DNA of 45,582 nt from a virus, in IMG/VR virus record IMGVR_UViG_3300031364_000006, positions 1 through 45,582 of that record; one strand, given 5' to 3'. Under the pieces are notes generated by a model. That model saw only the letters and a program-made list of their open reading frames with translations, searched no databases and was not told where the DNA came from. Positions within the stretch are counted from its first letter, which is position 1. Every line of letters starts with the position of its first letter. Position numbers and translations under genes: made by a program. Positions 6,566 to 11,365 of the stretch are shown piece by piece.

Positions 6566-7810
6566 TCACACCGCCTTTCTCAATCCTACCGTAATTAAAT
6601 CTTTGCCATATTTTTCAATCGCATATTCTGTCGCGTCAAGAACATCAACATTAAATGTACCATTATCAAGGCGCACATCTTCCATTGCCTTAGAATCCCA
6701 CACAGCGGATTGCAATGAATTGATTGTCTCTTTGCAGCTACGCATGATCTTAAAGCGCCCTTGCGCCATCAGCGAACACGTGAGCCGTATTCTGTTGTTG
6801 ATATCACCTTTTAAAGCGTTCCTGATTTCAATCGGAATTCTTTCGCGGATGCTTGCGACTTTAAGCCCTTGGATCAATGTCTGCTCCGCGCTGTCTGCGT
6901 AACATTCAACCACTTTGTATTTTTCTCTGCATTTACGAGCAAAGTCTATATAATCATGGTAAATATCTTCCGGGCTTTTTATTCCATCCTTGAAATGTTC
7001 ATCGAGGATTACAACTTCCTGCAAGCCTTTCGTAAATCCAACACAAATAAAAGCGTCGCCAGAACGATTCCCGCCCCAGTCAACGCCTATATTGGCAAAC
7101 CATATATTTTCAGGTGCTTTGTCGATTATGTAATCTGCCGGATGGTCTGCAAACAATCGGTATATAGCTCCCTCGGCTGCTTTCCACTGGCCTAAAATAA
7201 ACCGATCATAATAAACTGTGCCGCGATATTCATTCTTTAGATTCTCAACAAATCCCGGGTCATTGAAGGGATTATCGTCAAGGATAAACTGCATTGAATA
7301 AATGTCGGCATCCGAATCTAAAAACTTTTTGAACCAATGATTAGGATTGTCAGGATTGCTTGTACCGTCAAAGTAGCTTGTAGGTTTATCCAAACGGCTC
7401 TTGAGCATCGTGAATACGTCTTCATTCCACGTCGCTATTTCATCTCCATAGCAATATGACAGGCCGGAGCCTTGCAGCTTCGATACCTGGTTGACTTTGT
7501 CAGCGCCCAGGGCATAACATTCTTTGCCAAACAGGCGTATTTTGTTATTGCTCCCGATTGTGCCGACAAGCGCCGGGGTCCATATCTTCCGTAACGGATC
7601 TAATATATTGCGTTCAAGAGTACCCTTCGTGTTGCCAAGCAAAAGAATAAGCCCCTCGTTTGATGCGTTGCGAATGCGATAGGGGAGCTTGAAATAATCA
7701 AGATATGTTTTCCCAGAACGGGTCGCCCCATAACTTACATTCCACCTATGCGGTGTCTCAACCGATTCGTTCCATATTTGCTTTTGTTTTTTGCTGAAAT
7801 CAAGTTCCAT
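6566..7810 (-). CDS. terL: Terminase large subunit (PBSX-type ATPase-nuclease)
   Basis: The packaging motor subunit, 414 residues. The Walker A motif GATRSGKT is at residues 28-35, the Walker B-like acidic pair is in YCYGDEIATW (about 119-128), and the RNase H-like nuclease begins at VDWGGNRSGDAF (about 248-259), with further acidic residues at ECYADSAEQ and near the C-terminus (VDVLDATEYA). Length and motifs match PBSX-type large terminases. It overlaps a small membrane gene by 11 bases, an unusual arrangement between the two terminase genes. Confidence 0.93.
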   Translation of the reverse strand: MELDFSKKQKQIWNESVETPHRWNVSYGATRSGKTYLDYFKLPYRIRNASNEGLILLLGNTKGTLERNILDPLRKIWTPALVGTIGSNNKIRLFGKECYALGADKVNQVSKLQGSGLSYCYGDEIATWNEDVFTMLKSRLDKPTSYFDGTSNPDNPNHWFKKFLDSDADIYSMQFILDDNPFNDPGFVENLKNEYRGTVYYDRFILGQWKAAEGAIYRLFADHPADYIIDKAPENIWFANIGVDWGGNRSGDAFICVGFTKGLQEVVILDEHFKDGIKSPEDIYHDYIDFARKCREKYKVVECYADSAEQTLIQGLKVASIRERIPIEIRNALKGDINNRIRLTCSLMAQGRFKIMRSCKETINSLQSAVWDSKAMEDVRLDNGTFNVDVLDATEYAIEKYGKDLITVGLRKAV

Positions 7811-8078
7811 CGTTTGTCTCTCTGTATTCCGCTTCTGTTGCTAAAAGTATTTTGCCTCGCTGCATAAGCATTATAAATGCAGCAATTATATTGAAGAATG
7901 GTATTGATAATATTGCAATTGCGGGAAGTCTGCGCGATATCAATTCAAGGATTCCATACTTTTCAATTTTATGGTTTGGATATTTGTGCTTTAATTCGCT
8001 CATAATTCCCATAAAGTATAGTTTTATTACAATACCAATTATTACGGTGCTGATAATCCAAAATTTAATGAACCACAT
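7800..8078 (-). CDS. Membrane protein encoded between terminase subunits
   Basis: This 92-residue protein has two hydrophobic segments, residues about 3-25 and 52-74, separated by a basic loop (KHKYPNHKIEKYG). Its ATG overlaps the small terminase stop (TAATG) and its end overlaps terL, so it is translationally coupled to both. A membrane protein embedded in the packaging operon is atypical. It may be a moron or a superinfection-exclusion type protein; I have no motif to prove it. Confidence 0.65.
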   Translation of the reverse strand: MWFIKFWIISTVIIGIVIKLYFMGIMSELKHKYPNHKIEKYGILELISRRLPAIAILSIPFFNIIAAFIMLMQRGKILLATEAEYRETNDGT

Positions 8079-8533
8079 TACCCTTCGCCGCTTTCTTTCA
8101 TGCTTCCATTGAGTGCTTTTAGAATATTGTCAAGATGGGAAATCGTATCTTGATCGTCTTCGGCCGGATGATCGCGCCATCCTTTGAAGTTGTTTGCGAG
8201 ACTGAATTTAGCGCCCATTGCGCCGTCACGATCGAACAAACGGGACTCGGTATATTCCTCGCAACGGGCCTTCGCGCGCGTAATCGTGTCCACAAACTGT
8301 TTCTTTCCCTGATAATTCAATAGTGTTTGTCTGGAATTAAATCCTAACGCAAGTGCGAGTCCAGTAACCGTTGGAGGCCTTCTCTTCACAATTACTGGTT
8401 GCCCGTATTTATCGCATACAACGCTCCCATCAGTATCCTTCAAAATAGTTCCTTCACAATCTTTGAAATATGCGTCAATTGCTTTTTGCAGCTCTTCTGC
8501 TGTTTTGTATTTTAATGGTCTCCCAACGCTCAC
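8078..8533 (-). CDS. terS: Terminase small subunit (gp3-like DNA-packaging protein)
   Basis: A 151-residue DNA-recognition subunit that selects concatemeric phage DNA for packaging. It begins at a GTG with GAGGTG eight bases upstream (MSVGRPLKYKTAEELQKAIDAYF). The PPTVTGLALALGFNSRQTLLNY segment (about 53-74) is a helix-turn-helix-like region, followed by TRAKARCEEYTESRLFDRDGAMGAKFSLANNFKGW, characteristic of the P22 gp3/PF16677-like group. It is the first typical late structural gene downstream of the large non-coding RNA. Confidence 0.88.
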   Translation of the reverse strand: MSVGRPLKYKTAEELQKAIDAYFKDCEGTILKDTDGSVVCDKYGQPVIVKRRPPTVTGLALALGFNSRQTLLNYQGKKQFVDTITRAKARCEEYTESRLFDRDGAMGAKFSLANNFKGWRDHPAEDDQDTISHLDNILKALNGSMKESGEG

Positions 8534-8736: not shown

Positions 8737-9049
8737 CTGTTGTCCCTTTATAATCTAAATTATCTTCAATTGTAGGCGTACCTTTCTCTATTAGATTAGG
8801 CAGAATCCCAAGCATAAGCATAAACAAATATTTTAATTGGTTATTCCTATTTTTACATCCAATTTCTTTTGCACAATCTTCTAATTCTTCTTTTTCCCAA
8901 AAATCAAGTAATGCCATAATTATCTTTATTGATTCATCAAGGCTAAATCCGCCTTTTTTTAATCTTGCATATGTAAATCCAATATTGTTCTCAATGCGAT
9001 TGTTCACTTTGCATTTTGCAAAAAAGATAGATTTTTCAAAATTAGTCAT
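8723..9049 (-). CDS. Unknown protein, 108 residues, upstream of terminase
   Basis: A mostly helical, Cys-containing soluble protein (MTNFEKSIFFAKCKVNNRIENNIGF...). Its start overlaps the stop of the upstream gene (ATGA at 9049). I recognise no family. It is the second gene after the large RNA and the gene before the small membrane protein and terS. Confidence 0.6.
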   Translation of the reverse strand: MTNFEKSIFFAKCKVNNRIENNIGFTYARLKKGGFSLDESIKIIMALLDFWEKEELEDCAKEIGCKNRNNQLKYLFMLMLGILPNLIEKGTPTIEDNLDYKGTTDEEI

Positions 9050-9279
9050 CAGCTATTCTCCCTAACCGCATCCACGCACAGCATCAGCCTATTCCATTCC
9101 ATATTCAGCTCTGCCAGTCTTGCGCGTTCTGCAATAGTCAAATGCGGCTTGCGCTTCAATGCTATTTTTTCAGCATATATATCTCTGCGCTGGGCCATAA
9201 TACACTTTGAAAACGGGCAAACATTCTCGTTCGTTTTTTTGTGCTGATTCCACACGCAGGTTTCGTCGATACAAAGCAT
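9049..9279 (-). CDS. Small cysteine-containing protein, first gene after the large RNA
   Basis: The start is set at the ATG at 9279, with GGAGG six bases before it; an upstream in-frame ATG lies inside that ribosome binding site. The 76-residue protein has four Cys in its first third (MLCIDETCVW...VCPFSKC), spaced like a small zinc or iron site, then a charged helical region (LTIAERARLAELNMEWNRLM). It follows the UUCG terminator closely. Function unknown. Confidence 0.65.
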   Translation of the reverse strand: MLCIDETCVWNQHKKTNENVCPFSKCIMAQRRDIYAEKIALKRKPHLTIAERARLAELNMEWNRLMLCVDAVRENS

Positions 9280-9293
9280 TATATCCTCCATAG

Positions 9294-9318
9294 AAAAAGG
9301 ACGGCCCGAAGGTCGTCC
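9294..9318 (-). terminator. Terminator with UUCG tetraloop at the 3' end of the large RNA
   Basis: Read on the minus strand, GGACGACC-TTCG-GGCCGTCC forms an eight-pair stem with one A-C mismatch closed by a C(UUCG)G tetraloop, followed by five T residues. This defines a clean 3' end for the transcript spanning 9.3-10.2 kb and separates it from the late gene block, although read-through must occur for terminase expression unless another promoter exists. Confidence 0.85.
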
Positions 9319-10195
9319 AATATAATTATTAAACCATACCGCAGTTTTCGTCTGCGGCGCGACGTGTGCTTGCTATTTGACTGTTAGCAAGCGCAATCCG
9401 GAATGCACCAGTTAGGAGCCGATCATGCAGCTATCATTCCGTGCCTATTGCAAAATATACGTATGGTGCGCATATTCAGAGGCGTTGCGGATTTCATCAA
9501 AGATAAAGGTTATCGGGCAAGGATTTGCACCTTGCAAACTGGTTTTTCTCAGCATTAGACATTTTAATGGGTGTCACCCCTGGTGCCCCTTTTTCGCTGC
9601 GTGGTCTCAACTGCCGCGCATCCAGCAAATCGTCTGACACGACCATGCTGATTTTTATTTTGCGTTTACCTATTCCGCCACCGATAACCGTTGCTCTGGC
9701 ATTCGCCTGCCTGTAGGATTATCTACCGGCTTTGAAGCTTTTGTGCCAGCGTCAGCCTCATGCGGCCTTTGCTGACATGTTGGCCGCTACTTTCCATCAT
9801 TACGCCGACACTGCAGCTTGGCGCTCCGGATTTCGCGGTTACTCACTTGCGTATCAAGAGGGTTTCTCTATATAGCGCCTTGGTTCATCCGTGAGAAGAT
9901 GATTGGTGCCAGCTTTAAGTTAACTCGCTCTCAACTGACAAATACGCGGCGGCGCGCCTAGTTTAAGGTCTTTCCACCGCCGCATTTCAAATTCTACCGC
10001 AGACGATCAACCCTGCGGGCAACCCTTTGGCTTGCGTGTCAGCATCACCCGTTGTCGCGCCGTGCAATGCTATGTGTTCCGGTTCCACTTTAGGGCACCG
10101 GCAAGTATAAGCAGTCCGTGAGTTAATCCGCTCCGGGCCGCGTATCTGCGCCGTCGCATGGGCGGCGCGAAAAGGAGAAGAATGTGGAAAATGAA
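9299..10195 (-). ncRNA. Candidate giant structured non-coding RNA (GOLLD/ROOL-like class by size and setting)
   Basis: About 900 nt with no credible reading frame on either strand, visibly richer in G+C than its surroundings, ending at an intrinsic terminator on the minus strand. Many perfect or near-perfect stems can be read: GCTTGCT/AGCAAGC (9368-9374 with 9386-9392), GGAATG/CATTCC (9400-9405 with 9435-9440), CCGCAG/CTGCGG (9339-9344 with 9352-9357), a six-pair stem closing 9820-9879, a seven-pair GCGGCGG/CCGCCGC stem near 9949-9986, a CCGCAG/CTGCGG stem near 9999-10020 and GCGCCG/CGGCGC near 10149-10169. A tRNA-like domain lies inside. Phage-borne giant RNAs such as GOLLD and ROOL have this size and setting, but I cannot confirm membership without a covariance search. 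The 5' end is approximate and no clear promoter was found. Confidence 0.65.
9508..9689 (-). ncRNA. tRNA-Leu-like domain inside the large RNA
   Basis: On the minus strand GGTTATCGG at the 5' end pairs with CCGATAACC at the 3' end. The next bases, TGGCGGAATAGGTAAACGC, match a tRNA-Leu D arm including the GG of the D loop. At the 3' side GCAAGG-TGCAAAT-CCTTGC matches a T arm, with one change in the T loop. Between them, where anticodon and variable arms belong, is an insert of about 120 nt with further hairpins, including a five-pair arm with a seven-base loop lacking U33. No CCA is encoded. It is therefore a tRNA-like fold and not a normal tRNA gene. Confidence 0.65.
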
Positions 10196-10237
10196 AGCTT
10201 GTAATCATACTTTAGGCTTTTTCTATTTTATAGAATA

Positions 10238-10675
10238 TCACGATATAGAGTGTAATGGGGTGTCCACTTTCACTAATTGTATGGCTTTTTTGTGCATTTT
10301 AAAAACATTTTTCCCGTCAGGTGAATAATGCAATCTACGCGCAATATCTATTGGTCTCATATGATTTATGTACCAATATTCAAGCAAAATTCTAAGATTG
10401 TTATCCTCAAGAGATTTTATTGCGCCCATAATTTCCACTTTAATGTCCTGCATATCGTCTATATCTGAATTGATTTGATCGTCTATTTCTTCCATCTTTT
10501 CAATTGCTGTTTGGATTTTATTTTCTTCGCTAGCTGCTTTCGGCATATCCGATAAAGTCGGAGTTATTTTAGTCGCTTTTGACCACCACCCTGCGCGTTC
10601 ATCCAACAGGCGATCTATTTCTTTGTCTTTGTCTTTATATCGGCTTAACCATAGAATTTTTTCTTTATATGTCAT
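10238..10675 (-). CDS. DUF1492/ArpU-type late transcription regulator
   Basis: A 145-residue sigma-factor-like regulator that in related phages activates the late operon. The N-terminal coiled part (WLSRYKDKDKEIDRLLDER...WWSKATKITPTLSDMPK) is the DUF1492 signature. The C-terminal part (LLEYWYINHMRPIDIARRLHYSPDGKNVFKMHKKAIQLV, about 100-137) resembles sigma-70 region 4 with a helix-turn-helix. It is the last early gene before the large RNA and the terminase genes, the usual place for this regulator. Confidence 0.85.
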   Translation of the reverse strand: MTYKEKILWLSRYKDKDKEIDRLLDERAGWWSKATKITPTLSDMPKAASEENKIQTAIEKMEEIDDQINSDIDDMQDIKVEIMGAIKSLEDNNLRILLEYWYINHMRPIDIARRLHYSPDGKNVFKMHKKAIQLVKVDTPLHSIS

Positions 10676-10874: not shown

Positions 10875-11084
10875 CTATTCAAATTTTGATTCCTCCATAT
10901 TTTCATTCGCGGTACTTCTTACTTTATCTGCCAACTTTGCCGCCATATCTGCGTCGTAAGCAATTTCGGATAGACAACCATCAACCGATATAGGAGATGC
11001 GGTTAACGCGTTATAGCCGCGCTGAATTGATTCTACAGCATGCTGCAAGGCGACGATTGACATACCGATAGATGAATAGTTCAT
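10875..11084 (-). CDS. Small helical protein, 69 residues
   Basis: An Ala-rich, probably all-helical protein (MNYSSIGMSIVALQHAVESIQRGY...AAKLADKVRSTANENMEESKFE). It overlaps the upstream ASCH gene by four bases and is followed by the zinc protein. Function unknown. Confidence 0.6.
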   Translation of the reverse strand: MNYSSIGMSIVALQHAVESIQRGYNALTASPISVDGCLSEIAYDADMAAKLADKVRSTANENMEESKFE

Positions 11085-11365
11085 GGTTCACCTTCCAATT
11101 TTACCGATTGAATGCACAGCGTGATATATTTCTTGCCCGGTTCAGCGCCCCATTCGGTACGACCGGTTTTTATGCGTGGTATTACTTCGCAGATTGCAGA
11201 CGGACTATCTTCGCGGTACCCATTGCGTAGCCTTATAGTAATCCGTTTGCAAAAATGTGCTTTAAACCGACTAAAATAATATGGGGTGTTATCTCGGTAT
11301 TCTTCTTTCTTTTCGCCTGAAACAATCATTTCGAACCATTTCTTTTTGATTGGCAAAGTAATCAT
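11081..11365 (-). CDS. ASCH domain protein
   Basis: The 94-residue protein matches the small ASCH family: it begins MITLPIKKKWFEMIVSGEKKEEYRDNTPYYFSRF, the basic Lys/Glu/Arg patch typical of the fold's nucleic-acid-binding cleft, followed by ITIRLRNGY and a beta-rich end (YITLCIQSVKLEG). ASCH proteins bind RNA or act on modified nucleosides; the exact substrate here is unknown. It is coupled by ATGA overlaps to both neighbours. Confidence 0.8.
   Translation of the reverse strand: MITLPIKKKWFEMIVSGEKKEEYRDNTPYYFSRFKAHFCKRITIRLRNGYREDSPSAICEVIPRIKTGRTEWGAEPGKKYITLCIQSVKLEGEP

What the first reader, a model, noticed from the sequence alone, without database searches (positions are those of the whole stretch)
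9299..10195. Giant non-coding RNA candidate between early and late genes
About 900 nt without a credible gene, richer in G+C than its surroundings, with many perfect short stems and an intrinsic terminator with a UUCG tetraloop at one end. In a genome where nearly every base is coding this is striking. Size and phage setting recall GOLLD and ROOL, large ornate RNAs often carried by phages, which form cage-like multimers. It may be a divergent member or a new class.
Basis: partly seen in the sequence, partly recalled or inferred. Interest (0 to 1): 0.88.

Follow-up and report, generated by a model that had tools for sequence, protein, structure and literature searches.

The report
Phage RNA resembling a rebuilt tRNA
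The non-coding stretch next to this phage's DNA-packaging genes contains a tRNA-shaped RNA whose anticodon arm is replaced by a variable domain, one of a large unnamed family found here in more than 180 distinct versions, mostly in phages and prophages of Gram-positive (Bacillota) hosts; its function is unknown and it is not the giant GOLLD or ROOL RNA first suspected.

Summary
In detail: 9292-10237 is the largest gene-free stretch (946 nt; next 308), G+C 0.50, on the minus strand between a RinA/ArpU-type regulator and the packaging genes, ending in a UUCG terminator. Rfam has no match at E<=5, so GOLLD and ROOL are not supported, and a single 900-nt RNA is unproven. What is conserved is a 178-nt core (9510-9687, minus): a tRNA-Leu-like fold with a 7-bp acceptor-like stem, 3-bp D-arm, 6-bp T-arm with loop UGCAAAU, and a variable domain (126 nt here) in place of the anticodon arm. 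Pattern scans recovered 183 distinct relatives, unannotated in the phage records opened. Acceptor sequences are nearly free (109 different 7-mers) yet pair; 11 of 16 pairs show double changes, more than in any of 500 shuffles. A covariance model that excluded the window finds it at E=1.2e-14. The element often lies between the late regulator and terminase, often just before a terminator, sometimes in tRNA islands or beside ROOL. Likely a non-translating tRNA mimic released from a phage transcript; release and function are inferred. The 550 nt upstream fold better than shuffles (z -3.0) but lack homologues.

The parts
10238..10675 (-). RinA/ArpU-type late transcription regulator, upstream neighbour
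   Evidence: phrog_36 E 1.6e-16, phrog_248 E 4e-10
9292..10237 (-). whole gene-free region
   Evidence: largest gap in the window, G+C 0.50
9688..10237 (-). 5' domain, about 550 nt, possibly a structured RNA, no homologues beyond partial similarity to L004
   Evidence: z -3.0 on minus strand, -1.2 on plus; no nhmmer hits in 350 flanks
9744..9777 (-). hairpin UGUCAGC...GCUGGCA, shared with L004 (UGUCAGC...GCUGACA)
   Evidence: alignment
9510..9687 (-). tRNA-like element, the conserved core
   Evidence: model R1, which did not contain it: 57.2 bits, E 1.2e-14; next best in window 10.3 bits
9681..9687 (-). acceptor-like stem, 5' strand UUAUCGG (extendable to 9 bp)
9662..9678 (-). D-arm, 3-bp stem GCG/CGC with loop GAAUAGGUAAA
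9536..9661 (-). variable domain, 126 nt, in the place of the anticodon arm
9517..9535 (-). T-arm, 6-bp stem GCAAGG/CCUUGC with loop UGCAAAU
9510..9516 (-). acceptor-like stem, 3' strand CCGAUAA; no CCA follows
9319..9509 (-). 3' part, no detectable homologues
9294..9318 (-). intrinsic terminator with UUCG loop, one stem mismatch
9049..9291 (-). small ORF downstream; likely true start at about 9279, after GGAGG
   Evidence: a similar small ORF precedes terS in L338 by eye
8078..8533 (-). terminase small subunit
   Evidence: PF16677 E 2e-20, phrog_606
6566..7810 (-). terminase large subunit
   Evidence: phrog_2 E 2.8e-40

Best explanation
The region is a non-coding leader between the late regulator and the packaging genes. 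Its core is a tRNA-like RNA of an unnamed, widespread phage family: acceptor-like stem, D-arm, T-arm and the nucleotides of the tRNA elbow are kept, and the anticodon arm is replaced by a domain that differs from phage to phage. Shown: family, fold, covariation, gene context, excess of terminators downstream. Inferred: it is transcribed from the minus strand, cut out by tRNA-processing enzymes such as RNase P, and persists as a small RNA that cannot decode (no anticodon, almost never an encoded CCA, 6-bp T-stem, G where tRNAs have U55). It then acts in trans by looking like a tRNA, as a decoy, inhibitor or scaffold for tRNA-binding factors, with the variable domain as phage-specific payload.
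For: Scans with D-arm and T-arm patterns gave 183 distinct cores. T-arms were looked up from D-arm hits and D-arms from T-arm hits: 127 T-arm hits gave 114 distinct cores with a D-arm. Where the D-arm was located without using the acceptor, 77 of 80 acceptor stems pair at 6 or more of 7 positions; shuffled 12%. On 45 dissimilar members: 97.5% of cells paired, 11 of 16 pairs with changes on both sides, covariation score 0.607 against 0.159 shuffled, reached by 0 of 500 shuffles. tRNA elbow nucleotides U8-A14, R15-Y48, G18, G19, U54-A58 and C56 are kept in 176 of 183, a count partly helped by the search patterns. The middle helix ends exactly 2 nt before the T-stem in 100 of 183. ARAGORN calls no tRNA in the window. 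The model gives ordinary tRNA-Leu genes about 30-44 bits, showing kinship, and the window 57. Context: regulator phrog_36/248/2198 upstream, terminase or HNH downstream (annotated phages BtpYZU01, VEsP-1, LP-101, B054). Terminators within 300 nt downstream 31%, upstream 8%, random 9%.
Against: No transcript, processing or phenotype data were available. Without an encoded CCA, RNase P and RNase Z cleavage is not assured. Nothing tested here shows binding to a tRNA-recognising factor. Frequent placement just before terminators fits a cis role equally well.
Confidence: 0.55

Rival explanations
1. Cis-acting late-leader element: the folded RNA controls termination or processing in the transcript running from the late regulator into the terminase operon, comparable in position to the lambda Q/6S/tR' leader or to put-type antitermination RNAs.
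For: Position between RinA/ArpU-type genes and terminase and terminators close downstream, 26 of 162 starting within 75 nt.
Against: It also lies in tRNA clusters of lytic and very large phages, for example Grass and L085; most members have no recognised terminator within 300 nt; the middle domain is unconserved.
Confidence: 0.2
2. One giant structured RNA of about 900 nt, a new class like ROOL or GOLLD, with the tRNA-like core embedded as GOLLD sometimes embeds tRNAs.
For: 5' domain z -3.0 on the minus strand against -1.2 on the plus strand; L004 has the same layout and a shared hairpin; ROOL occupies the position directly upstream of the core in L128; GOLLD linkers can hold tRNAs (PMC12286853).
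Against: No Rfam match; 5' and 3' parts have no homologues beyond L004; other phages carry the core with about 80 nt of upstream gap; close relative L338 lacks the core.
Confidence: 0.15
3. Packaging RNA: the folded RNA assists the terminase or portal, as pRNA does in phi29.
For: Frequent neighbour of terminase genes.
Against: Also lies in tRNA islands; no Rfam family matches the region; a close relative, L338, has the terminase genes without the core.
Confidence: 0.05
4. Decayed tRNA-Leu pseudogenes.
For: D-arm nearly identical to tRNA-Leu; model kinship.
Against: Decay does not give two-sided compensatory changes, a nearly invariant GGUGCAAAUCC arm and a fixed 2-nt joint across unrelated phages.
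Confidence: 0.03

Closest known systems
tRNA-Leu (class II tRNA)
   Same: D-arm sequence, 3-bp D-stem, 7-bp acceptor, elbow nucleotides; model R1 gives tRNA-Leu genes about 30-44 bits
   Different: No anticodon arm, 6-bp T-stem, G55 instead of U55, CCA encoded in 2 of 183, variable domain of 8-232 nt
tmRNA (RF00023)
   Same: tRNA-like end domain with the anticodon arm replaced by a long domain (from general knowledge)
   Different: No Rfam or ARAGORN tmRNA match in the window; has a D-stem; no conserved reading frame seen by inspection
ROOL (RF03087) and GOLLD
   Same: Phage setting, near tRNA islands; ROOL lies directly upstream of the core in L128 and about 1.4 kb downstream in L085
   Different: No match in the window at E<=5; two ROOL loci from Bacilli genomes lack the core
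YrlA (bacterial Y RNA) and mascRNA/MALAT1
   Same: Non-translating tRNA-like modules attached to other RNA (from general knowledge)
   Different: No YrlA match in the Rfam scan; mascRNA is eukaryotic and was not compared

Membership tests
ROOL | match to the curated covariance model RF03087 | tested here: not met
   no match in window at gathering or E<=5; positive control L128 260.7 bits
GOLLD | match to its curated Rfam covariance model | tested here: not met
ROOL/GOLLD-like nanocage RNA | homo-oligomeric cage | not testable with these tools
   needs cryo-EM or native gel
functional tRNA-Leu | anticodon arm | tested here: not met
   ARAGORN none; arm position holds 126 unrelated nt
functional tRNA-Leu | acceptor, D-arm, T-arm and elbow nucleotides | tested here: met
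   except 6-bp T-stem and G55
tmRNA | tmRNA model match and tag reading frame | tested here: not met
   tag frame judged by eye only
YrlA | Rfam model match | tested here: not met
phage tRNA-like family described here (model R1) | two-part core with paired acceptor, found by a model that excludes the window | tested here: met
   57.2 bits, E 1.2e-14; true tRNA-Leu reach at most about 44 bits

The most novel reading that the evidence does not exclude
A widespread, unnamed class of phage RNA that mimics tRNA, carries a phage-specific payload in place of the anticodon arm, and acts on the host's tRNA or translation machinery during the switch to late genes; in this phage it may be embedded in a new large RNA that occupies the same slot as ROOL.
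Probability: 0.35. Interest if true: 0.9.

Novelty: new variant of a known kind. Interest (0 to 1): 0.74.

Why it matters
If real as an RNA, this is a tRNA-like RNA class present in many phages, including model ones such as phi3T of Bacillus subtilis, SPO1-like Grass and Listeria B054, where it has gone unannotated. It often sits at the early-late switch next to packaging genes and in the neighbourhood where ROOL and tRNA islands occur, so it could help explain what those RNAs do. It can be tested at once in laboratory phages.

Tried and rejected
GOLLD, ROOL, tmRNA and every other Rfam family: no match at E<=5. Protein gene: 73-aa ORF without relatives. DNA-level relatives of the whole region in phages and plasmids: none of note. 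Relatives of the 5' and 3' parts: none in 350 flanks or 391 Clostridia genomes apart from the core. Search from the late regulator: no relatives. Search from the neighbouring ASCH-like gene: 80 relatives, core only in L340 (same contig as L004) and L374. Antisense pairing of the variable domain with the rest of the phage: longest exact complement 12 nt, taken as chance. Promoter-like sequence directly upstream of the core: 13 of 162 (8%) against 4% at random, too weak to claim. Some genome-collection hits to the short D-arm pattern were ordinary coding DNA or true tRNA-Leu and were excluded. Literature searches (nine of ten used) found no description of such a family; subscription journals and preprints are mostly not held, and an attempt to open the 2017 paper I remember as describing ROOL failed, so absence from the literature is not proven.

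Full report
WHAT IS THERE. The window is a 45.6-kb virus record. The flagged stretch is its largest gene-free gap, 9292-10237, 946 nt with G+C 0.50; the next gap is 308 nt. Genes on both sides run on the minus strand: a RinA/ArpU-type regulator (10238-10675) upstream; downstream small ORFs, terminase small subunit (8078-8533) and large subunit (6566-7810). The gap ends with a UUCG intrinsic terminator at 9294-9318, just before the listed start of the next ORF; a GGAGG with ATG at about 9279 suggests that the true start is slightly later. No ORF in the gap that was tested has relatives.

NOT GOLLD OR ROOL. Rfam 15 gives nothing in the window at gathering scores, and nothing in the region at E<=5. 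The method does detect ROOL elsewhere: 260.7 bits in L128, 292.3 in L085, 170 in L414.

THE CONSERVED CORE. Among relatives of the small terminase, one contig (L004) had weak similarity at the same place. The shared ends read as a tRNA-Leu D-arm and a T-arm closed by a common stem. Collected, these give 183 distinct cores of 60-284 nt, median 123. Layout: 7-bp acceptor-like stem; UG; 3-bp D-arm; variable domain of 8-232 nt; usually AU; 6-bp T-arm with loop UGCAAAU; acceptor return strand.

TEST OF STRUCTURE. Acceptor sequences are nearly free (109 different 7-mers) yet 178 of 183 pair at 6 or more of 7 positions; part of this set was selected for pairing. In the subset where the D-arm was found without using the acceptor, 77 of 80 pair at 6 or more, against 12% after shuffling. 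On 45 dissimilar members 11 of 16 pairs show two-sided changes and none of 500 shuffles reaches the observed value on any measure; sliding the partners by 1-3 columns destroys the pairing. Even the conserved D-stem shows compensatory exchanges, G-C to A-U and C-G to U-A. The nucleotides that hold the tRNA elbow together are kept in 176 of 183. This count, and the G55 count, are inflated by the search patterns. In the scan that did not require the T-loop sequence, a handful of expanded elements show other loops, for example L125 and L123 with UUCAAAU, so G55 is prevalent rather than universal. The middle helix ends exactly 2 nt before the T-stem in 100 of 183.

MEMBERSHIP OF THE WINDOW. A covariance model built without the window or L004 finds 9510-9687 at 57.2 bits, E 1.2e-14; the next match in the window has 10.3 bits. 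Ordinary tRNA-Leu genes score about 30-44 bits, so the family is kin to tRNA-Leu but separable, although L004 at 46.7 bits and VEsP-1 at 42.8 lie close to or within the border zone. In 250 Bacilli genomes 5 had clear members of 59 bits or more.

CONTEXT. Upstream neighbours are often late regulators (phrog_36 in 19, phrog_248 in 16 of 73 proteins scanned, overlapping), downstream neighbours often terminases or HNH endonucleases (phrog_2606 in 11, phrog_51 in 10 of 89). Annotated phages show the order directly: BtpYZU01 regulator-core-terminase; VEsP-1 ArpU-core-tRNA-Arg-terminase across the record ends; LP-101 RinA-core-HNH; B054 near the genome end, with terS at the start. In the SPO1-like phage Grass it lies in a tRNA cluster. 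In the records opened it is unannotated or partly overlaid by a hypothetical ORF. Terminators follow within 300 nt in 31%, against 8% upstream and 9% at random.

THE REST OF THE REGION. The 550 nt upstream fold better than shuffles on the minus strand (z -3.0) and not clearly on the plus strand, but have no relatives apart from L004, which shares the hairpin at 9744-9777 and a few short collinear pieces of no statistical weight. The close relative L338 has the regulator and terminase without the core. Whether 9294-10237 is one RNA or several is open.

INTERPRETATION. Best supported is a tRNA-like RNA class with a replaceable domain. Release by tRNA-processing enzymes and action in trans as a tRNA mimic are inferences. 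A cis role in late transcription is the main rival; a single giant RNA and a packaging RNA are less likely; pseudogenes are contradicted by the covariation.

LIMITS. No expression data. Sampling is by pattern and capped, so numbers are lower bounds, not frequencies. The literature held is partial.

Noticed in passing
L128 667-1248 and 1262-1384: A ROOL RNA ends 13 nt before the tRNA-like core; L085 has ROOL about 1.4 kb downstream of the core in a tRNA island.
   Followed up: partly
L360 7122-7953 and L375 7132-7943: Gene-free stretches of about 820 nt, richer in G+C than their phages, 65.6% alike over 843 nt, followed by a tRNA, with no Rfam match other than that tRNA at E<=0.5: another unnamed large RNA candidate.
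   Followed up: partly
L381 6389-7302: A 913-nt gap with several tRNA-like pieces, among them a 149-nt Leu-like tRNA with an expanded middle, ordinary T-loop and CCA (Rfam tRNA 35.3 bits).
   Followed up: partly
L109 and L153, upstream of the core: Short tRNA-like sequences of about 60 nt with acceptor, D-arm and T-arm but only 8 nt where the anticodon arm should be.
   Followed up: partly
L118 5678-5737: Smallest member of the family, 60 nt, with only 8 nt between D-arm and T-arm.
   Followed up: no
L075 and L093: Similar variable domains joined to different acceptor stems, and one acceptor (GTGCTTG) joined to different domains, suggesting modular exchange.
   Followed up: no
L094 14441-14508: Type II hammerhead ribozyme match (48.8 bits) in a contig that also carries the core.
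   Followed up: no
window 11081-11365: Small protein weakly similar to the ASCH domain (below Pfam's cut-off; phrog_625, unknown function) near the region; 201 relatives in viral contigs.
   Followed up: partly
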